Shown one piece after another: positions 1-62,894 of a stretch of 64,000 nucleotides of DNA. Source of the DNA: Cristatella mucedo (Eukaryota > Bryozoa > Phylactolaemata > Cristatellidae); contig WPIO01000011.1 of NCBI GenBank assembly GCA_009760855.2, forward strand, positions 6,267,501-6,331,500, written 5' to 3'. Position 1 is the first letter of the stretch. Each line of letters opens with the position of its first letter. The translations under genes were made by a program, and so were the position numbers. The notes beneath the pieces were generated by a model that was not told the DNA's origin, did not search any database, and saw only the letters and a list, made by a program, of their open reading frames with translations.

Positions 1-558
1 TTCAATACCTTGGCTAGTTTTCGCACTACGTCCAGGGGCGTATGGGAAGACCTTCTCACCTGACATTAAGATGTCATCGGTCGACGGTTAACCCAAACTT
101 AAGATATCTGCTGTGACAGCATAAAGGCCTTCGAGATGGATATAACTTATCGTGTATCGGCCATCGGCCTCTCAACTTACGTCAACGGTGCAGCCGAAAG
201 CTGCAGTTGCCAGCATTCCAGCTCTCTCGGCCTACGACGGACTGCATCAAGCAGCTAGCAGGCTGAGGTCACAGCAAGTATTTGTCAGTCTCAACACAAC
301 GTCTCCTAATTTAAAATTGCGAGTGAGTTTCGTGAACTCGTTTATTTGGCTAGAGAATCTGGGTAAACTGGACTGGTGAAAACTCAGTCCCACTCTCGAA
401 TTAACGGTCGCTAATTAAATCATGTCTTTCCATTCCAGGTCAACAGTTACATTAGCCACATCAACGCTCGTTCGGCTCCAAGAGTGAAGAAGCTGGTGGC
501 ACCTTCACCTTGACGGCTGCTCGTAACACCCGGCTAGCTAGTGAGTCCCTCCGGCGCC
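1..558 (+). repeat. 5' flank of the HtrL-like gene, duplicated at 13,637-14,260
   Basis: This stretch aligns by eye with 13,637-14,260; both begin with TTCAATACCT and share the GGGGCGTAT block. A pyrimidine-rich stretch ending in CAG at 436-438 (CTTTCCATTCCAG) looks like a splice acceptor, so the gene downstream probably has a 5' UTR exon boundary here. The 75-codon open frame at 152-379 is not clearly conserved and I do not call it a gene. Confidence 0.6.
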
Positions 559-1647
559 ATGGCAGTCACAGTCACCAAGGCAGAGGCCAGCTGCCGAATC
601 AAGTGGCGCAGAGCAACCGTTCTAGTCATGCTATCGGTTGGCATAGTGATCCTATTTCTGACCTTCCGACCTACAATATCTTCGGTTTCGGCTGAGCACT
701 TTGAGAACGCTAATAGGACTGACCTCGTTCAGTATCCATCAGTCGCTTGGACGGCTTCACAGTCCTCCGAGATGAACAGGAGCCCCAACGTGACAATAGT
801 TACGGCTTTCTTCAATATCGGATCTTTTGCTAAAGGCAGTCCTGGAAATATTAGAGGACCTTCGACTTATGAAAAGTGGATATCCACGTACGGTCACATA
901 GAGAACTCGGTGGTAGCTTATTTTGACAACGATGCCATGGCGAAGTATTTCACCAGGCTTAGACTAGGCAAACCTACGAAAGTCGTCATGGTCGACCGAA
1001 AGGAGATGTGGGCCTTCACTCTGCAGAATCGAACCCAGTCGATATTCGACCAGCCCGGCTACCCACAAAATCACCCCAAATCCACAAACGCTGCATACGT
1101 GTGTGCCATGCACGCCAAGTACGAGCTGCTAGCCACAACTGTCCGACAGGACCCGTTCAACACGATCTATTTTGCTTGGCTCGACGCGGGTTTGTTTCGT
1201 GATCTGGCAGGCAGCCAGAACATGCCACCCTTCGTCATTAACTCACCCGAGTGCCACCGAAGCGAGGCAGTGGCATTCTCCAAGGTTTACTCGATGAGCG
1301 ATAGATCTGTGGCAGACATCATGAGGAATGGCCTGGACTGGGTAAGTGGGGCGTTCCTGATTGCCAAATCAGACGTGATGCTCAGGTTCTGTGCAGACTA
1401 CATGCGTCGAGCCGAGGATCTGCTGGGCCGCGGACTGGCCAATCACGACCAGAGCGTCATCTTGTCGCTATACGCGCCTAGCTCGGATTGGACGGCGGCC
1501 GTGCCCCTTCAGGGCTTTTATGGAACCGGCTTCAACGAATGGTTTTATATCGCTTACCTACAAAGGCAGGACTGGATTGACCGAGGCCCTCGACCCAAGG
1601 CCAGAAGGCCAGACGGCCTTCAATGTTCGTACGTTCTGTATAAATGA
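559..1647 (+). CDS. HtrL/YibB-like membrane-anchored protein
   Basis: The open frame encodes 362 residues from an ATG in a strong Kozak context (GCGCCATGG); the frame is open a little further upstream but only from a GTG. A basic stretch (KWRR, residues 15-18) precedes one hydrophobic segment (about 19-36), giving a type II signal-anchor topology as in Golgi enzymes. From residue 77 the protein resembles the HtrL/YibB family: the strand NVTIVTAFFNIG, the STYEKW motif, a YFDNDA segment, and YFAWLDAGLFR around residue 207. Family members occur in bacteria and some invertebrates and are thought to be glycosyltransferase-like, but the activity is not established. Potential N-glycosylation sites are NRT (52) and NVT (77). 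No introns interrupt the domain. A broken paralogue lies at 14,261-15,345. The family call is from recognition, not a search. Confidence 0.8.
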   Translation: MAVTVTKAEASCRIKWRRATVLVMLSVGIVILFLTFRPTISSVSAEHFENANRTDLVQYPSVAWTASQSSEMNRSPNVTIVTAFFNIGSFAKGSPGNIRGPSTYEKWISTYGHIENSVVAYFDNDAMAKYFTRLRLGKPTKVVMVDRKEMWAFTLQNRTQSIFDQPGYPQNHPKSTNAAYVCAMHAKYELLATTVRQDPFNTIYFAWLDAGLFRDLAGSQNMPPFVINSPECHRSEAVAFSKVYSMSDRSVADIMRNGLDWVSGAFLIAKSDVMLRFCADYMRRAEDLLGRGLANHDQSVILSLYAPSSDWTAAVPLQGFYGTGFNEWFYIAYLQRQDWIDRGPRPKARRPDGLQCSYVLYK

Positions 1648-4269: not shown

Positions 4270-5277
4270 CTCTCGGTGTCTCGGCGGGGCTGGCTGCCTG
4301 GTCTCGGCGGGGCTGGCTGCCTGGTCTCGGCGGGGCTGGCTGCCTGGTCTCGGCGGGGCTGGCTGCCTGGCCTCGGCGGGGCTGGCGGCCTGGCCTCGGC
4401 GGGGCTGGCGGCCTGGCCTCGGCGGGGCTGGCGGCCTGGCCTCGGCGGGGCTGGCGGCCTGGCCTCGGCGGGGCTGGCGGCCTGGCCTCGGCGGGGCTGG
4501 CGGCCTGGCCTCGGCGGGGCTGGCGGCCTGGCCTCGGCGGGGCTGGCGGCCTGGCCTCTGGCCTCGGCGGGGCTGGCGGCCTGGCCTCGGCGGGGCTGGC
4601 GGCCTGGCCTCGGCCTCGGCCTCGGCTGGTCTCGGCCTCGGCTGGTCTCGGCCTCGGCTGGTCTCGGCCTCGGCTGGTCTCGGCCTCGGCTGGTCTCGGC
4701 CTCGGCTGGTCTCGGCCTCGGCTGGTCTCGGTTGGTCTCGGCCTCGGCTGTCTCGGCCTCGGCCTCGGCTGGTCTCGGCCTCGGCTGGTCTCGGCCTCGG
4801 CCTCGGCTGGTCTCGGCCTCGGCTGGTCTCGGCCTCGGCTGGTCTCGGTCTCGGCTGGTCTCGGTTGGTCTCGGCTGGGCTGGTCTCGGCTGATCTCGGC
4901 TCGGCTGGTCTCGGTTGGTCTCGGCTGGGCTGGTCTCGGCTGATCTCGGCTGGGCTGGTCTCGGTCTCGGCTGGTCTCGGCTGGTCTCGGCTGGGCTGGC
5001 CTCGGCTGGTCTCGGCTGGTCTCGGCTGGTCTCGGCTGGGCTGGCCTCGGCTGGCCTCGGCTGGCGTCGGCTGGCGTCGGCTGGCGTCGGCTGGCGTCGG
5101 CTGGCGTCGGCTGGCGTCGGCTGGCGTCGGCTGGCGTCGGCTGGCGTCGGCTGGCGTCGGCTGGTCTCGGCTGGTCTCGGCTGGTCTCGGCTGGTCTCGG
5201 CTGGTCTCGGCTGGTCTCGGCTGGTCTCGGCTGGTCTCGGCTGGTCTCGGCTGGTCTCGGCTGGTCTCGGCTGGTCG
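4270..5277. repeat. GC-rich minisatellite array with changing unit length
   Basis: About 1 kb of near-perfect tandem repeats built on CTCGGCTGG. The first third has about 15 units of 23 bp (CTCGGCGGGGCTGG followed by CTGCCTGGT or CGGCCTGGC). Next come 16-bp units (CTCGGCCTCGGCTGGT) to about 4,870, then mixed 10- and 15-bp units, ten 10-bp GTCGGCTGGC units, and about twelve 10-bp TCTCGGCTGG units up to 5,275. Long open frames on both strands (for example 345 codons at 4,244-5,281 minus) follow from the lack of stop codons in the repeat and are not evidence of genes. The plus strand is rich in short G-runs. Confidence 0.95.
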
Positions 5278-13636: not shown

Positions 13637-15345
13637 ATTCAATACCTATGCTAGAATTCTCATCATATACAGGGGCGTATTCGAAGGCTCTTATGTAACA
13701 TCAGGATGGCGTCAGGTGACGGCTAAGAGAAATTAAGGTGGCTACTGTGATAGCTATACACAAAAATATAATTCATTTACATACAGCTATCAAGGAAGCT
13801 TCGCGATGGTTACTATTGCGAGGTCGTGGTCAAGGTCGTGCAGCAGGCATTGGCTTCTCAACGTACGTCGAGGTGCAGCCGAACAAGCCGTTGCCGGCAT
13901 TCCTGCTCTTGGCCTGTAACTAGGCCAATCAATCAGCCAATCGATCAGCCGATAAGTCAGCCAATCAGCTAGTGCATCGAGCTGACTGCTAGCGATTGTC
14001 GACCTCGGCCGAGGTTGAGTTGCGAAAGAGTTTCGTGAACTCGGTAATTTGGATGGAGACATTAAGCTTACAAGCAGGACTGGTGAAAACGCAGCCCCAC
14101 TCTCAAATAACGGGATGCATGCTTTTACGTTCCAGGTCAACAGTTCCGTCTGCCACGTCGAAACTTACTTGGCTCCAAGAGTGAAGAAGCTAAATGCTGT
14201 ACACCTTCACCTTGACGGCTGCTTGTAACACCCGCTAGGCTACTGGCTCCCCCTGGCACCATGACAGCGACAGCAGCCACCTAGAGGCAGGCCGGCTGCC
14301 AAACCAAGTGGTGCAGAGCGGCCGTGCTAATCGCCATTCTTCTGGCCATAGCTGTCGTCGGGATCCTTCTCAACTCTCAACCTAAGATATCAATCATTTC
14401 GGCTGGAGCTCTGGGAACCCTGGGAAGCTGTACTTCCCCTTCCAAAAGGCAACTGTCGCCTGCAATGCTTCGCAAACCTCCCCCTCGGATGACAGGAGCT
14501 TCAACGTGACAATAATTACAGCTTTCCTTTATATCGGATCTTTTGCTAGAGGCAGCACTGGAAATTTGAGTGGTACTTCTACTTATGAAAAGTGGATGAC
14601 CACGTGAGAACTTTGAGAACTCGTTGGTAGCTCATTTTGACGACGACGCGATGGCCCAGTATTTCTCCAGGCTTCGACAAGGTGAGCCTACGAAAGTCTT
14701 CATGGTCAACCGAAAGGAGATGTGGGCCTTCACTCTGCAGAATCGAACCCAGTCGATATTCGACCAGCCCGGCTACCCACGAAATCACCCCAAATTTACC
14801 AAGGCTGGCATGCTCGAAATGCTCGCCAAGTACAAGCTGCTGGCGATAACTTTCCGACAGGACCCGTTCAGCACGATCTATTTTGCCCAGCTCGACGTGG
14901 GGCTGTGTCGTGATCTGGCAGGCAGCCACAACATGGTGCCCTTCGTCATTAACTCACTTAAGTGCCACCGAACTGAGGCAGTGGCCTTCTCCAAGGTTTA
15001 CTCGATGAGCGATAGATCTGTCGCCGACATCATGGATGATGTCCTGGACTGGGTGAGTGGGGCGTTCCTGATTGCCAGATCAGACGTGATGCTCAAGTTC
15101 TGTGCAGACTACAGGAGTCGAGCTGAGGATCTGCTTGGCAGAGGACTGGCCATTCACGACCAGAGTGTCATCTTGTTGCAACATGCCCCGAGCTCGGATT
15201 GGACGGCGGCCGTGCCCCTTCAGGGCTTTCATGGAACCAGCTTCAACGAATGGTTTTATATCGCTTACCTACAAAAACAGGACTAGATTGATCGGGGCTC
15301 TCGGCCCAAGGCCAGAATGCTTTAAACGTTCGTACGTTTTGTATC
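13637..15345 (+). repeat. Segmental duplicate of 1-1,690 (HtrL-like gene region)
   Basis: Aligns by eye with the window start through the end of the HtrL-like coding region, including the 5' flank, the acceptor-like tract near 14,130 (TTTTACGTTCCAG) and the whole coding sequence. The orientation is the same and the offset is about 13.7 kb. The LINE cluster at 6.6-13.4 kb lies between the copies. Confidence 0.85.
14261..15345 (+). pseudogene. HtrL/YibB-like pseudogene
   Basis: Paralogue of the intact gene at 559-1,647. Relative to that copy it has a TAG eight codons after the ATG (14,282-14,284), a 2-base deletion producing a frameshift and TGA near 14,605, and a TAG (15,284-15,286) replacing the Trp after the conserved YLQKQD. 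The longest remaining frame (14,624-15,286) still reads through the family core, including MWAFTLQNRT, SVADIM and WVSGAFLIA. The intact copy's WLDAG is changed to QLDVG here. The damage makes function unlikely, although a shortened internal protein cannot be formally excluded. Confidence 0.85.
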
Positions 15346-24665: not shown

Positions 24666-24946
24666 TAGTGAGATAAAAATAGCAGAATTAAACGTATGCC
24701 TATTAACAGACACTGAGAGAGGCACAGGCGGAGTTCGAAGCTGAAAAGGCAAGGTTGAAAAGACAAAGAGAGACCAACCTAAGAGTCCGTGAACATTAGC
24801 TGATAAACAAAGAGAAGATGCAACTACTGGTGAGGCCTCGAAAGAGAGATTCAGATACAATATATACCTAAATATGTACATACACTACCTATGTAATGTG
24901 GAGTCAGAAATAGAGGTGACACAAATAATGATCTTTCTGCTCAGGT

Positions 24947-25260
24947 CGGCACCTGTGGTTGGGCTATGCTGTTTACTTGGTGCATCATTGGTGAATCATT
25001 GTCTTCGGCCGAAGACAATGATGCTGCTGACATTGACCTCAAGACATTGACCTCAAGAGCTTCCCTGAGCCGACAAAACCAGGTCCCAGTAGCTGATTTT
25101 CGACGAGATGCTACGCCAGAATGTGAAGGTGCACAACCGGAAGGCCATTGCCGATTCCACGTTCGGCACGAGCATCATCGATGCGCCGACAGCCCAGGCC
25201 AACGAGGCGTTCATGTGGATCACAATCGCTTGTGGCTTTAGGGCTGAGAGGTGGCTCTGT
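24947..25260 (+). pseudogene. Conserved coding-like exons, first copy (unknown protein)
   Basis: An acceptor-like TCTTTCTGCTCAG precedes GTCGGCACC, exactly as in the duplicate at 55,231. Downstream one frame reads FDEMLRQNVKVHNRKAIADS and ends CGFRAERWLCCH. The duplicate has DEMCRQNTKVHKQKAITDP in the matching frame, so the reading frame has been partly kept. A 28-bp palindrome lies inside this copy (24,995-25,022), which disturbs the first part. I do not recognise the family; it may be two small exons of a membrane or secreted protein, possibly dead in this copy. Confidence 0.35.
24995..25022. repeat. Perfect 28-bp palindrome
   Basis: ATCATTGTCTTCGG is followed immediately by its exact reverse complement, with no loop. 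It is absent from the matching place in the duplicate (55,231-55,330). Confidence 0.9.
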
Positions 25261-26213: not shown

Positions 26214-26619
26214 AAATTCATCAGATTCTTCGACTGCCACGGTCCACAGGCCCTGCTTCGCCCTCGATCTGCTTGTGTCTCGACGATACTTGGCTAAGCT
26301 AGTGCAGCTTCAGTGATTATTTGTATGCTAAGTCTAAATAACGTGGGTGCATTTCTTTCCTTAGCCTTTCAGACTTGCTGCCGGTGACGATGGCAGTCAA
26401 TCGTGCTGACACAGCTGCTTTCCTAGCTTGAGGGTCGGCCTCCTGCTTAATGCTGCCACCACTTGTTCGGGTCCTGAACCAGAACACCTGCACCTCTTGC
26501 ACAAGTTTTCGCTGATCGAAGTCCTAGAGTTACATGCAGCCAAGCTTCGTGTATGCAAGCCAGCCATGGAAACGACAATTGTTGATGCTTATGCCTGCTG
26601 GAGCTATCTGTATAGGCAT

Positions 26620-26930
26620 GTACCCTCACCTCTTGCACACATTTCCTAGGATCGAAGTTCTTGTGTGGTATGCAGTCAAGCTTCGTGCATGCAAGCCAGC
26701 CATAGACACGATCATTATTACGGCTGCATACACTGTGCATGCTGCAGCTACCTGGAATTTGCATGCTGATCCTTTGTAAGTCACCTCTAAGCGTGCTACT
26801 CTTGTTGTTTATTGAGCATGCAACCGCAACCATTCAATAGTGCTTTCTTTGCAGCAAATATAAGGTCTCTAGAAAGAGATTGAGTACCCTGAGGGCACTA
26901 TTTCAAATGTATTATAACTATTATTAATTG
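26620..26930 (+). mobile_element. LINE-A-like 3' end (old, shared by both duplicates)
   Basis: Plus-strand 3' UTR blocks (GCATGCTGATCC, TAAGTCACCTCTAAGC), then GTCTCTAGAAAGAGATTGAG and GAGGGCAC with an ATTATAACTATTATT tail. A matching copy lies at 56,640-56,805, so it predates the segmental duplication. Confidence 0.7.
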
Positions 26931-42201: not shown

Positions 42202-43282
42202 ATGCTCTCCTATCGACGTCTGTTCGCCAACGCAGTGGTGATGATGGTAATGCTTCCATCCATAGTGTAAGTGAGCTGGCTCCCTCAAGCGAAAACCTGT
42301 GCTTGCCTCTCGAGCCTTTGAAAAGCCTAACTGTAGCCCCGTTCAGTAGACGGCTGCTTCATCCAAAGCTCGGCTCGGGCCTATTCGTATAGTGACATCC
42401 TACTCGTGATTAGGACCTACATCGAGCGTCTACCCGGCGATGCCTCTCTGCCTGATGTCACATATTTGTCCTAATTTCCTACTGGGTTGCAGCTCCTGCA
42501 GAGGCGGTGGTGGGCAGCAGTGCTTGGCTGCCTTACTCCTCCACCCAGTGGTGCTGGCGGTTATTCCTCCAGGAGCGGCAGCATTCCTTTGGTCTAAGCT
42601 AATCCTGTCTGAAAGCCATTCAGACATAAATTGTGTGCTGACCCGAGTACAAGCATCTCAAATATAATGAGTCTAGATATAGTTCTGCGATGGCATTATA
42701 ACAAATGTATTATTTCTTTTTTAAATTTATTATAAAGGGGCGTCGCTGTGTTTAAAGCTTGTGAGCGAAGGTGACCACTGAGAGTGTTGCCATCGCCTAG
42801 TGCCGATACTTGTTTGAGGTCGGATGTTCAGGCGCCATGTTGCACTTTTACAGTAGCTGCTGTAACAGGAGGCCTTCATTCTGGAATATGCCATGCCCTC
42901 CGGGTGATTACTGTGGATGCGAGTACACGGAGCAAGACGATGTGCTAAGCAATCAGGCAGAACTGAAAGATGCCGGTGTGTGGTGCCAAGTGATTAAGGT
43001 GAGTAGAACGATCCGGGTTTGTAGCTGAAGCGATCCAAGTGAGTAGCGTCGCTCCAACGCTGGCCAGACAGCTTGACATCTTCCTTCAATGCCGATCGCA
43101 TTAAACCGTCCTGCTATCCCTTCTGTCGTCTCGTTGCACAGAATGAGCGAGAGCACTTGGTGCGGGCCCTAGCAAAATGCCAAAAGGCAGGAGCGGAAGC
43201 GACGCAACAAGTGAATCGCTCCCTCGGCAACTACAACGTTCACTACGAAGCCTGTGTCCGCGCGGGCAAAATAAGGAGCTAG
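42202..43282 (+). CDS. Small secreted cysteine-containing protein, copy A (three exons proposed)
   Basis: Exon 1, 42,202-42,266, encodes MLSYRRLFANAVVMMVMLPS, a signal-peptide-like start, and ends at a consensus donor (GTAAGT). Exon 2 ends at 42,998 (AAG before GTGAGT) and carries HFYSSCCNRRP, PCPP, CGCEY and WC. Exon 3, 43,142-43,282, follows a good acceptor (TCGTTGCACAG) in the same phase and ends EACVRAGKIRS before TAG. Conserved cysteines with copy B (61,472-62,670): CC, C, CxC, C and C. The start of exon 2 is unclear. Compared with copy B, the likely acceptor-to-HFY interval is 19 bases shorter, which would shift the frame, so this copy may use another junction or be damaged. I recognise no family; the role is unknown. 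An AATAAA follows at 43,501. Confidence 0.6.
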
Positions 43283-43500
43283 AAGCTGCAGTTCTGGGTA
43301 TTACGCTGCTAGAAGTAATTCAAAGGGACCAGCTAGCTGTTGCTGGCCGGTTGCAGATGGACGACGTGCATATCTGCCACAGATCTGCCGCCCGACTGCC
43401 TGACGGCTAAAGCATGGCAGTCTGTTCTCTTTCTAACGCCTCGCGATACCTGTCACGCCGTCGCTTTTGTCAGTGTTTGTTTAACCATTTTAATCGCGGG

Positions 43501-43506
43501 AATAAA
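43501..43506 (+). promoter_or_regulatory. Polyadenylation signal, secreted-protein gene A
   Basis: AATAAA in the conserved context AATAAAGCCAACTT, 219 bases after the stop codon. The same motif and context lie at the matching position of copy B. Confidence 0.65.
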
Positions 43507-54965: not shown

Positions 54966-55230
54966 GTAGGCGTATGCATTTTAACAGACTCAGACAGACG
55001 GGTGGGCAGAGTTTGAAGCTGAAGAGCAAAACGTCAAAGAGACCAAAAGAGACCAAGCCAATAAAAAGTCCGTTGACATTAGGTGATACACAAGGACAAT
55101 ATGCAAATGACGGTCAGGCCGCGAAAGAGAGATTTATATGCAATATCTCTATAGCAATGTACATAAACTGCCCATTTTGTGTGGAACTGGAAATAGTCGT
55201 GACATAAATAACGATCTTTCTGATCAGGTC

Positions 55231-55509
55231 GGCACCAAGGTAATGGACTACGTCGTCAACGTGATGCTGGCTGCCTTCCTCAGCACCTTACTCTTAGGCA
55301 AGGGCTACCTAGTGCCAATAAGGCTGGTAAGAGGCTAATATCCGACGAGATGTGTCGCCAAAACACGAAGGTGCACAAGCAAAAGGCCATCACCGATCCG
55401 AAGTTCGGCATGGGCATCAGCAACGCCCCTTCAGACAAGACCTTGCTGCTGCCCGACCCTGCGTTCACGAGCATCGCGATGGCAGGTGGTTGCCTGGCTT
55501 TAGCCTAAG
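55231..55509 (+). CDS. Conserved coding-like exon(s), second copy (unknown protein)
   Basis: After an acceptor-like TCTTTCTGATCAG, GTCGGCACC opens a frame VGTKVMDYVVNVMLAAFLST, then LLLGKGYLVPIRL with a hydrophobic stretch, reaching a donor-like CTG|GTAAGA at about 55,328. A different frame is open across the same bases and continues SDEMCRQNTKVHKQKAITDP, KFGMGISNAPSDKTLLLPDP and FTSIAMAGGCLALA to a stop near 55,508. The second frame has a recognisable partner in the first copy (24,947-25,260). Which frame is real, or whether they are two exons, cannot be decided. No family recognised. Confidence 0.35.
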
Positions 55510-56639
55510 GAGGTGGCTCTATTGCTGCTCGGTCTGCAGGCTGAAGTTGGGTGGACAGGTGGTCAGGTCAATATTGGAGGCGCAGCCAGCTGTTTCTGCT
55601 CAAACCGAGTTTGAGAGGCAGAATTCTTTTTTCTGGTTTGTAACTTCTCTTTGTACTCGAAGACTAAGCAGATCAAGTCGATTCGGCTGGTACTAGGTAG
55701 CTATGGGGTATTGGCTGAAAGCACTTGCCGATGAGGCTTCCTTGCATCTGCCTCAAATGCATCAATTCCTCTCACCGTCTATCATCTACATGTCTTGATT
55801 GCAAGACGTGATTCCAACTCATCTCGTTGCTGTCAGTGGCTTGCATCATTCACTTGGCTTGCGTGAGATCTTGATTGGACAACCAGCCAAAGTCAGCAAA
55901 TAACTTCAGTTTGATGACATTAGGGCCGGCTGCTTGCCTCCAGCTAGCCACTCGACAGAGGCCTGAACTGCGACGGCCAGCATGCAGCAGCCTGCCCTCA
56001 TAGAGCCATCAGGCATTGGCCGGCTGGCTGCAGTGCTTTCAGGCAGGCAGGCTAGGCGAAGAAGTAGAAGCATTCTGCTCCTGCTGCTCTGGGCACAAAT
56101 CCAGCCTGTTGACTTTCCTGTGTGCGACAGCTGGCCTTTCCACTCATCGAGAGAGTCACTCATAGGCGTAGTCACTGGTATGCCTAGTCGCTAAATGACA
56201 TAGTCGCTAATAGAGGATTTCAGCCACAGGGGTAGATCGCTAGGCGTTAGGCTGCATCAGATTCTTCGACTGCCACGATCTACAGGCCCTGCTTCCATGT
56301 CGATCTGCTTGTGTCTTGGCGATACTTGGCTAAGCTAGTGCAGCTTGAGCGATTCGTTGTATACTAAGTCTAAATAACGTGGGTGCATCTCTTTCCTTAG
56401 CCTTTTTAGACTTGCTGTTGGTGACGATAGCAGTCGTTCGTGCTGACACAGCTGCTTTCCTAGCTTGAGGGTCGGCCTCCTGCTTAATGCTGCCACCACT
56501 TGTTCGGGTCCTGAACCAGAACACCCGCACCTCTTGCACAAGTTTTCTCTGATCGAAGCCCTAGAGTTACATGCAGCCAAGCTTCGTGAATGCAAGCTAG
56601 CCGTAGACACGACAATTTTTTATGCTTATGCCTGCTGAC

Positions 56640-56805
56640 GCTACCTGTATTGGCATGCTGACCCCAGACGTGTCATCTCTAAGCATATTACTCTTGTTGT
56701 TCGTTTTGCATGCTAGCCATTCAATCGTGCTTCCCTAAAAGCAACTGTAAAGTGCCTAGAAAGAGATTGAGTTCTCTGAGGGTGCTTTAACAAATTGCTG
56801 CTTGG
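56640..56805 (+). mobile_element. LINE-A-like 3' end (old, shared)
   Basis: Matches 26,620-26,930 position for position. The stem-loop reads AAAGTGCCTAGAAAGAGATT ... GAGGGTGCTTTAAC. Confidence 0.7.
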
Positions 56806-61471: not shown

Positions 61472-62670
61472 ATGCTATCCTATCGATGTCTCTTCACCAA
61501 TGCAGTGGTGATGATGGCAATACTTCTATCCGTGGTGTAAGTGAGCTTGCTCGCTCAATCGCAAACCTGTACATGACTTGCCAGCCTCTTACAAGCCTGA
61601 CTGTGTCCCAGTTTCAGTAGACGGCTGCACCATCCAAAGCTTGGCTTGGGCCAACTCGGGCAGTGACCCCCTACTCGTGATTAGGACCTGCCTCGAGCCT
61701 CTAACTTACGATGCCTCTCAGCCTGATATTGTACGTTTGTCTTCATTCTGCCAATGGGTCGCAGCTTCCGTGGTTGCCAGCAGTGTCATGCAGCCTCACT
61801 GCTCCACCCAGAGTGGAGGGTGGTCCTCACTCCAGGGGGTGGCCGCATTCGTTCAGTCAAAGCGAATCCTGTCTGAACGCCAATCAGACAGGAAGTGTTG
61901 CACCGAATTGGAGCATCTCAAAAGAAAAGAGCTAGAAAAAGTTCTCCGAGGGTGCTATAATTTATTTACTTTTAATATTTTGTTTATCATGAAGAGCTGA
62001 GCTCGGTTCTCTGAGCGTGGCCATCTCCTATTGCTGAATCTTATTTAAAGCCGAAGTAGGATGACCGAGCGCAATGTTGACTTCGACCACATGCACTTTT
62101 ACAGAAGCTGCTGCCACAGGCTCCCTGTGCTCTGGAATCAGCCGTGCCCTCCAAAACATCACTGCGAATGCGAGTACGTGCAGGCTCATGATGTGCTAAA
62201 CGGTCAGGCAATGCTGCAAGATGGAGGTATGTGGTGGCGGGCGATCCAGGTGAGTGGCTGAAGCCAAGCGTCGGGGCAAGCTGCTTAAGCGATCCAGGCG
62301 AGTAGCTGAAGCGATCCAGGCGAGTAGCTGAATCGATCCAGGCGAGTAGCCGAAGCGATCCAGGCGAGTAGCTGAAGCGATTTAGGCGAGTAGCTGAAGC
62401 GATCCGGGTGAGCAGCCGCACTCCCACACTGGCAAGAGAGGGCTTCGGCTTCATTCGGTGCCATATTTCGTGAAATCGTCATTCTGCCGTCACGTCGCGC
62501 AGACTCATCGGGAGCGCCTGGAGCTGGCCCTGACGATCTGCCCAGCTGGCACAGTAGCGATGCAAGGACTGAATAGCACCCTCAGCACCTACATGGCTCA
62601 CTACAAGGCATGCGTCCGAGCTGGCTATAAAGACAGCGAGAAGATGCAGCATGGGTTTTTATGCTGCTAG
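61472..62670 (+). CDS. Small secreted cysteine-containing protein, copy B (three exons)
   Basis: Exon 1, 61,472-61,536, encodes MLSYRCLFTNAVVMMAILLS, a signal-peptide-like start, with a GTAAGT donor. Exon 2, 62,051-62,249, follows an acceptor-like CTTATTTAAAG and joins in phase (exon 1 ends two bases into a codon, exon 2 supplies one). It carries HFYRSCCHRLP, PCPP, CECEY and MWWRAIQ, then a CAG|GTGAGT donor. Exon 3, 62,503-62,670, follows GTCACGTCGCGCAG and ends YKACVRAGYKD...FLCC. The spliced total is 432 bases, giving 143 residues. Seven cysteines are shared with copy A (42,202-43,282), plus a C-terminal CC pair only here. No transmembrane segment beyond the signal is visible. No family recognised. 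AATAAA at 62,889. The intron after exon 2 contains a 22-bp minisatellite. Confidence 0.68.
62288..62419. repeat. 22-bp minisatellite, six units, resembling the adjacent splice donor
   Basis: Six units of AGCGATCCAGGCGAGTAGCTGA (20-base core GCGATCCAGGCGAGTAGCTG). The exon 2 donor region just upstream reads GCGATCCAGGTGAGTGGCTG, so the units are copies of the donor region with GTGAGT changed to GCGAGT in most. Copy A has one or two related units (near 43,008-43,045). Confidence 0.92.
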
Positions 62671-62888: not shown

Positions 62889-62894
62889 AATAAA
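62889..62894 (+). promoter_or_regulatory. Polyadenylation signal, secreted-protein gene B
   Basis: AATAAAGCCAACTT, the same context as at 43,501 in copy A. Confidence 0.65.

What the first reader, a model, noticed from the sequence alone, without database searches (positions are those of the whole stretch)
61472..62670. Secreted cysteine protein pair whose mature exons diverge faster than signal exon and UTR
The two paralogues (42.2-43.3 and 61.5-62.7 kb) sit in the same duplicated block, so all their parts are of similar age. By eye, the 65-base signal exon differs at about 10 sites (15%) and a 93-base 3' UTR sample at about 13 (14%). The 156 aligned bases of exon 2 differ at about 45 (29%), and most changes alter amino acids (28 of 52 residues identical). 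Signal and cysteines are kept. This pattern is known for fast-evolving secreted proteins (defence, gamete recognition, host interaction), but the function here is unknown.
Basis: partly seen in the sequence, partly recalled or inferred. Interest (0 to 1): 0.72.

Follow-up and report, generated by a model that had tools for sequence, protein, structure and literature searches.

The report
Duplicated small secreted protein genes
Two neighbouring copies of a gene for a small secreted, cysteine-bearing animal protein have drifted apart at about the background rate while keeping reading frame, signal and most cysteines; this looks like ordinary loosely constrained duplicates rather than proven positive selection, with an unusual repeat that copies a splice site as a side finding.

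Summary
The gene pair is real: two three-exon copies (42202-43282, 61472-62670) with matching GT-AG sites, an aligned AATAAA, and a kept frame while intron 1 gathered 10-13 indels. The raw contrast is real: signal exon 15%, mature exons 30-31% (p=0.015). Introns and flanks differ at about 25%; exon 2 is not significantly above intron 1 (p=0.17) and 16% of non-coding windows are as high. Mature dN/dS is 0.62-0.68, not different from 1; replacement changes match the non-coding rate. The whole 3' UTR differs at 19-23%, not 14%. One cysteine is lost and the C-termini differ. A mild excess of mature-exon change may exist (p=0.066 raw, 0.018 corrected), but it sits in silent sites, as reported for conotoxin exons; two copies cannot settle it. 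No family, fold or relative was found. Unexpected: intron 2 holds a 22-bp minisatellite copying the exon 2 donor, like the "mirages" reported in lancelet genes. The organism was not identified.

The parts
61472..61536 (+). copy B exon 1: start codon and probable signal peptide
   Evidence: splice context and translation; hydropathy maximum 3.06 at residues 12-22; 10 of 65 bases differ from copy A
61537..62104 (+). copy B intron 1, GT-AG, 568 bases
   Evidence: 138 of 544 aligned bases differ
62105..62249 (+). copy B exon 2: N-terminal half of the mature protein, CC...C...CxC
   Evidence: 45 differences, no gap in the MAFFT alignment
62250..62502 (+). copy B intron 2, GT-AG, 253 bases
62241..62420 (+). 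mirage-like array: unit over the exon 2 donor (62241-62262) and six 22-bp units at 62289, 62311, 62333, 62355, 62377, 62399
   Evidence: 20 of 22 matches between the border and the array unit
62503..62670 (+). copy B exon 3: C-terminal half, stop TAG at 62668-62670
   Evidence: one 3-base gap against copy A
62889..62894 (+). copy B poly-A signal AATAAA
   Evidence: aligned with that of copy A
42202..42266 (+). copy A exon 1 (probable signal peptide)
42854..42998 (+). copy A exon 2
43142..43282 (+). copy A exon 3, stop ten codons before the position of B's stop
43008..43051 (+). copy A: two degenerate array units in intron 2
   Evidence: 17 and 16 of 22 matches, the two best + strand matches among starts 1-62200 (one minus-strand site elsewhere also has 16)
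43501..43506 (+). copy A poly-A signal AATAAA

Best explanation
Two tandem-duplicated protein-coding genes of an unidentified animal encode a small secreted protein (from residue 23 on, 94 and 103 residues, 8 and 9 cysteines, one N-glycosylation motif at the same aligned place). Inferred working: exon 1 directs export; the mature chain folds into a disulphide-braced helical unit outside the cell and acts by binding something through a surface that tolerates change. After duplication, selection kept the frame, the signal and most cysteines, while the rest of the mature chain changed at about the neutral rate. The contrast with the signal exon comes mainly from constraint on the signal, not from proven positive selection on the mature part. 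The role I think most likely is extracellular defence or mucosal or reproductive secretion (inference only, perhaps one in three for any one of these). Shown: gene anatomy in the sequence, frame conservation, rates. Inferred: secretion, fold, function.
For: Splice sites and codon phases match in both copies and the AATAAA signals align. Intron 1 has 10-13 indel events in 545 aligned bases at three ordinary gap penalties (28 at the cheapest), which predicts 7-9 in 377 coding bases; one 3-base gap is seen in the MAFFT alignment, Poisson P(<=1) 0.008-0.001. A neutral lineage of the same length stays free of stops in 3-6% of simulations. Cysteines kept 7 of 8 against 40 of 85 other residues (p=0.059). 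Omega 0.62-0.68, not different from 1. Exon 2 and exon 3 divergence is reached by 16% and 18% of non-coding windows. Mature identity (47 of 93) is close to what unconstrained change at the intron rate gives (mean 54%). The AlphaFold model of copy A is all helical, mean pLDDT 67.8.
Against: A control simulation shows that my aligner slightly inflates non-coding divergence; against a corrected 24% the mature exons (96 of 315) are faster, p=0.018, and exon 2 stays above intron 1 at all four gap penalties tried, so some real excess may exist. Synonymous sites of the mature part exceed non-coding DNA (24 of about 60 against 361 of 1426, p=0.015; bootstrap ratio 1.84), though four-fold sites alone give 9 of 21, p=0.078. 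The DNA-only aligner put an 11-14-base gap in exon 2 at ordinary penalties (not examined; both exons are 145 bases long). No transcript evidence. The copy B model is poor (pLDDT 40), so the fold is weakly supported.
Confidence: 0.66

Rival explanations
1. Positive selection: the mature surface is driven to change by a partner (pathogen, prey, gamete), with the cysteine frame held fixed. Averaged over sites this can leave omega below 1.
For: Signal against mature contrast p=0.015; mature exons 30.5% against 25.3% non-coding, p=0.066 raw and 0.018 after bias correction; dN point estimate 0.36-0.38 against non-coding K2P of 0.29-0.37.
Against: Omega 0.62-0.68, not above 1; dN over non-coding 1.15 with interval 0.81-1.58; nonsynonymous 62 of 219 against 361 of 1426, p=0.36; no excess at codon positions 1 and 2.
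Confidence: 0.17
2. Locally raised substitution rate over the mature exons, silent and replacement sites alike, as reported for conotoxin exons (Dn and Ds both rise from exon 1 to exon 3).
For: dS of mature exons 0.56-0.57 against exon 1 0.34-0.43 and non-coding K2P 0.29-0.37; P(dS/K<=1)=0.01. PMC3862624 Table 5, read in section 22.
Against: Rests on about 60 synonymous sites; four-fold sites p=0.078. Intron 2, which lies between the mature exons, is 29% but 17-26%, so it does not clearly share the rate. The cause offered in PMC3862624 is its authors' hypothesis.
Confidence: 0.1
3. One or both copies are relaxed or dying: near-neutral change with frame kept by chance or until recently.
For: Omega not different from 1; copy B has an odd number of cysteines after C66 to W; the copies differ in stop position.
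Against: No frameshift or internal stop in either copy, splice and poly-A signals kept; shared N-glycosylation motif.
Confidence: 0.07

Closest known systems
Conotoxin precursor genes (cone snails; PMC3862624, abstract and section 22 read; PMC10561478, abstract only)
   Same: Separate signal exon that changes slowly, later exons that change fast at both silent and replacement sites, a trinucleotide indel in the mature region, two introns in most superfamilies
   Different: No toxin relative found by the sequence and fold searches run; mature chain is about 100 residues and modelled as helical; no propeptide recognised; omega not above 1
Mirages: tandem repeats across exon-intron borders in lancelet genes (PMC3087553 and PMC3902484, passages read)
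   Same: Short tandem units spanning the exon 2 border, carrying splice-signal copies, differing in number between copies; 22 bp lies in the 10-72 bp range that PMC3087553 gives for Adh3
   Different: Most units carry GC instead of GT at the donor; the gene is another one; the host here is not shown to be a lancelet
Generic rapidly diverging secreted paralogues (defence and reproductive proteins, general knowledge)
   Same: Small, probably secreted, cysteine-bearing, tandem duplicated, mature part variable
   Different: No member family could be named; adaptive divergence not demonstrated

Membership tests
Positively selected secreted protein pair | dN/dS significantly above 1 in the mature part | tested here: not met
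   omega 0.68, p=0.21 against 1; bootstrap 0.35-1.13
Positively selected secreted protein pair | replacement changes exceed change in introns and flanks | tested here: inconclusive
   dN/K 1.15, interval 0.81-1.58; whole exons p=0.066 raw, 0.018 corrected
Conotoxin-type precursor | conserved signal exon, diverged mature exon | tested here: met
   15% against 30-31%, p=0.015
Conotoxin-type precursor | sequence or fold similarity to a known toxin family | tested here: not met
   both copies: no Pfam family at its cut-off; copy A alone: best PDB sequence E 0.19; two-row profile: no PDB match to E 10; copy A model: no Foldseek match with E<=0.001. Copy B alone was not searched in PDB
Conotoxin-type precursor | venom-gland expression and propeptide cleavage | not testable with these tools
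   no expression data; organism unknown
Mirage (exon-border minisatellite) | tandem units spanning an exon-intron border | tested here: met
   border 62241-62262 matches the unit at 20 of 22; six intronic units
Mirage (exon-border minisatellite) | units carry copies of the splice signal | tested here: met
   CAG|GCGAGT four times, TAG|GCGAGT once, CGG|GTGAGC once
Mirage (exon-border minisatellite) | regular splicing is not disturbed | not testable with these tools
   needs RNA
Pseudogene | frameshift or internal stop | tested here: not met
   both spliced frames open; one 3-base gap only in the MAFFT alignment

The most novel reading that the evidence does not exclude
The genes belong to an undescribed, lineage-restricted family of helical disulphide secreted proteins (possibly of lancelets) whose mature exons carry a raised substitution rate at silent and replacement sites, as in conotoxin genes, and in which a splice-site minisatellite keeps rewriting the end of exon 2 and offers alternative donors.
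Probability: 0.1. Interest if true: 0.6.

Novelty: new member of a known kind. Interest (0 to 1): 0.3.

Why it matters
It shows how a signal-against-mature contrast, often read as adaptive evolution, shrinks once introns of the same age are used as the yardstick. The protein has no match in the libraries searched here (none of which is a library of animal proteomes). The splice-site minisatellite, if the host is a lancelet, would add another gene to the mirage cases and gives a duplicated pair in which the turnover of such an array can be followed.

Tried and rejected
Whole-genome search for more copies: no genome held. Relatives by back-translated patterns: 3 and 55 pattern matches in viral contigs and 11 and 42 in genome contigs, none confirmed by tblastn; these are collections of viruses and prokaryotes, so absence says nothing about animals. 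Third copy in the window by tblastn: apart from A and B the best hit has E 0.52. Pfam: only sub-threshold noise. PDB by sequence, copy A: best E 0.19, a mitochondrial subunit, rejected as chance; profile: 0. Foldseek with the copy A model: 55 matches to E 10 (50 listed), none to 0.001. The copy B model was too poor to search. Alignment artefact as the cause of slow introns: simulated (15 settings, 12 runs each), the bias runs the other way. Organism: Rfam and ARAGORN (bacterial code) gave nothing; 30 further ORFs scanned with Pfam gave two families at their cut-off, HtrL_YibB and a reverse transcriptase, plus sub-threshold hits. I first guessed tick, then gastropod, from repeats by recall; short recalled tick motifs were absent, and nothing run here could decide the taxon; the mirage leans to lancelet. 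A listing of papers on amphioxus and secreted cysteine-rich families named no match (listing only). Splice-site duplication is not confined to lancelets: a potato case appears in the listing (start of abstract seen, PMC4974935).

Full report
What is there. The window holds two copies of one gene on the + strand. Copy A has exons 42202-42266, 42854-42998 and 43142-43282; copy B has 61472-61536, 62105-62249 and 62503-62670. All four introns are GT-AG with consensus-like donors, and the exon phases agree. Copy A gives 116 residues and copy B 125. Each copy has AATAAA 219 bases after its own stop, and the two signals align. tblastn of both proteins finds no third copy in the window (next best E 0.52). 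The copies lie in a larger duplicated block, pieces of 23.8-44.7 kb against 54.0-64.0 kb, broken by interspersed repeats.

Is it coding? Yes, most likely. Intron 1 has 10 to 13 indel events over 545 aligned bases at three ordinary gap penalties and 28 at the cheapest. The first range predicts 7-9 in the 377 coding bases; the MAFFT alignment has one gap of three bases there (Poisson 0.008 to 0.001). The aligner, which knows nothing of exons, placed one 11-14-base gap in exon 2 at ordinary penalties; I did not examine it, but both exons are 145 bases long and the border carries repeats. In a simulation with unconstrained substitution over one lineage of the observed length, 3-6% of sequences stayed free of stops. 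There is no transcript evidence.

The rates. Exon 1 differs at 10 of 65 bases, exon 2 at 45 of 145, exon 3 at 51 of 168, intron 1 at 138 of 544, intron 2 at 39 of 135, 5' flank at 56 of 239, 3' UTR at 47 of 206, 3' flank at 128 of 508 (one search used exon ends one to three bases off). Other gap penalties move these numbers, for example exon 2 to 23-30% and intron 1 to 20-25%, with exon 2 above intron 1 each time. Exon 1 against exons 2+3 gives p=0.015. Exon 2 against intron 1 gives p=0.17, and exons 2+3 against introns and flanks p=0.066 (96 of 315 against 361 of 1426). Among non-coding windows of the same size in the near block, 16% reach exon 2, 18% reach exon 3, and 5.5% are as low as exon 1 (windows overlap).

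Selection. By the counting method the mature part has dN 0.356 and dS 0.569; by maximum likelihood omega is 0.68 (p=0.21 against 1); for exon 1 it is 0.34-0.43 (p=0.17). Codon positions in exons 2+3 carry 29, 27 and 30 differences. Bootstrap: dN over non-coding 1.15 (0.81-1.58), omega 0.62 (0.35-1.13), dS over non-coding 1.84 (1.11-2.96). Nonsynonymous sites therefore move at about the non-coding rate (62 of 219, p=0.36). What excess there is lies in silent sites (24 of about 60, p=0.015), although four-fold sites alone are not significant (9 of 21, p=0.078). A control simulation shows that MAFFT slightly inflates non-coding divergence; after correction to 24%, a value I read off that simulation, the mature exons are faster at p=0.018. 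This is against my reading and I give it weight: a mild local excess may be real, but it does not look replacement-driven. In conotoxin genes Dn and Ds both rise from the signal exon to the mature exon (PMC3862624, section 22).

The protein. Both copies begin with a hydrophobic stretch (maximum mean hydropathy 2.58 and 3.06). No cleavage-site predictor was available; I took the mature part from residue 23, where exon 2 begins. It is 10.6 and 11.7 kDa, pI about 7.5, with an N-x-S/T motif at the same aligned place. Seven of eight mature cysteines of A are kept in B; C66 is W in B; B ends in two more cysteines beyond the position of A's stop. AlphaFold with a two-row alignment gives helices for A (pLDDT 67.8) and no confident model for B (40.3). 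No Pfam family, solved structure or fold matched.

The splice-site minisatellite. The 22-bp array in copy B's intron 2 is made of copies of the exon 2 border: the border matches the array unit at 20 of 22 bases, and six further units follow. Copy A has two degenerate units (17 and 16 of 22), the two best + strand matches among starts 1-62200, so the array probably predates the duplication. Five of B's six intronic units carry a GC donor and one a GT donor. Such repeats across exon borders are called mirages and are reported in lancelet globin and Adh3 genes, where the authors found regular splicing undisturbed (PMC3087553, passages), and in troponin C and PGBD5 (PMC3902484, one passage). This hints at a lancelet host, which I put at about even odds; nothing here proves it.

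Verdict. Observation partly confirmed, interpretation partly supported. The pair is most likely a normal tandem duplicate of an unnamed secreted protein with a loosely constrained mature part. Positive selection is neither shown nor excluded by two copies.

Noticed in passing
window 62241-62420 and 43008-43051: Minisatellite in intron 2 whose 22-bp units copy the exon 2 splice donor, in both paralogues; resembles the 'mirage' structures described in lancelets.
   Followed up: yes
window 538-1644 and 14600-15283: An open frame with an HtrL_YibB domain (Pfam E 1.1e-12) and a second stretch 88% identical to it over 300 bases that does not itself reach the Pfam family.
   Followed up: partly
window 55195-55510 and 24930-25240: By eye, in the same duplicated block, an exon-like stretch with a hydrophobic segment in one copy, apparently broken in the other; no Pfam match.
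   Followed up: partly
window 26219-26620 and 56255-56657: This part of the block differs by only 8.5% while the neighbouring pieces differ by 18% and 28%, from gene conversion or a younger repeat; the block is not of one age throughout.
   Followed up: no
window 43280-43312 and 62638-62670: Copy A stops ten codons before copy B; the frame beyond A's stop stays open to the position of B's stop.
   Followed up: partly
window 4278-5276: A 1-kb tandem array with periods of 10 and 23 bases in the most GC-rich part of the window.
   Followed up: no
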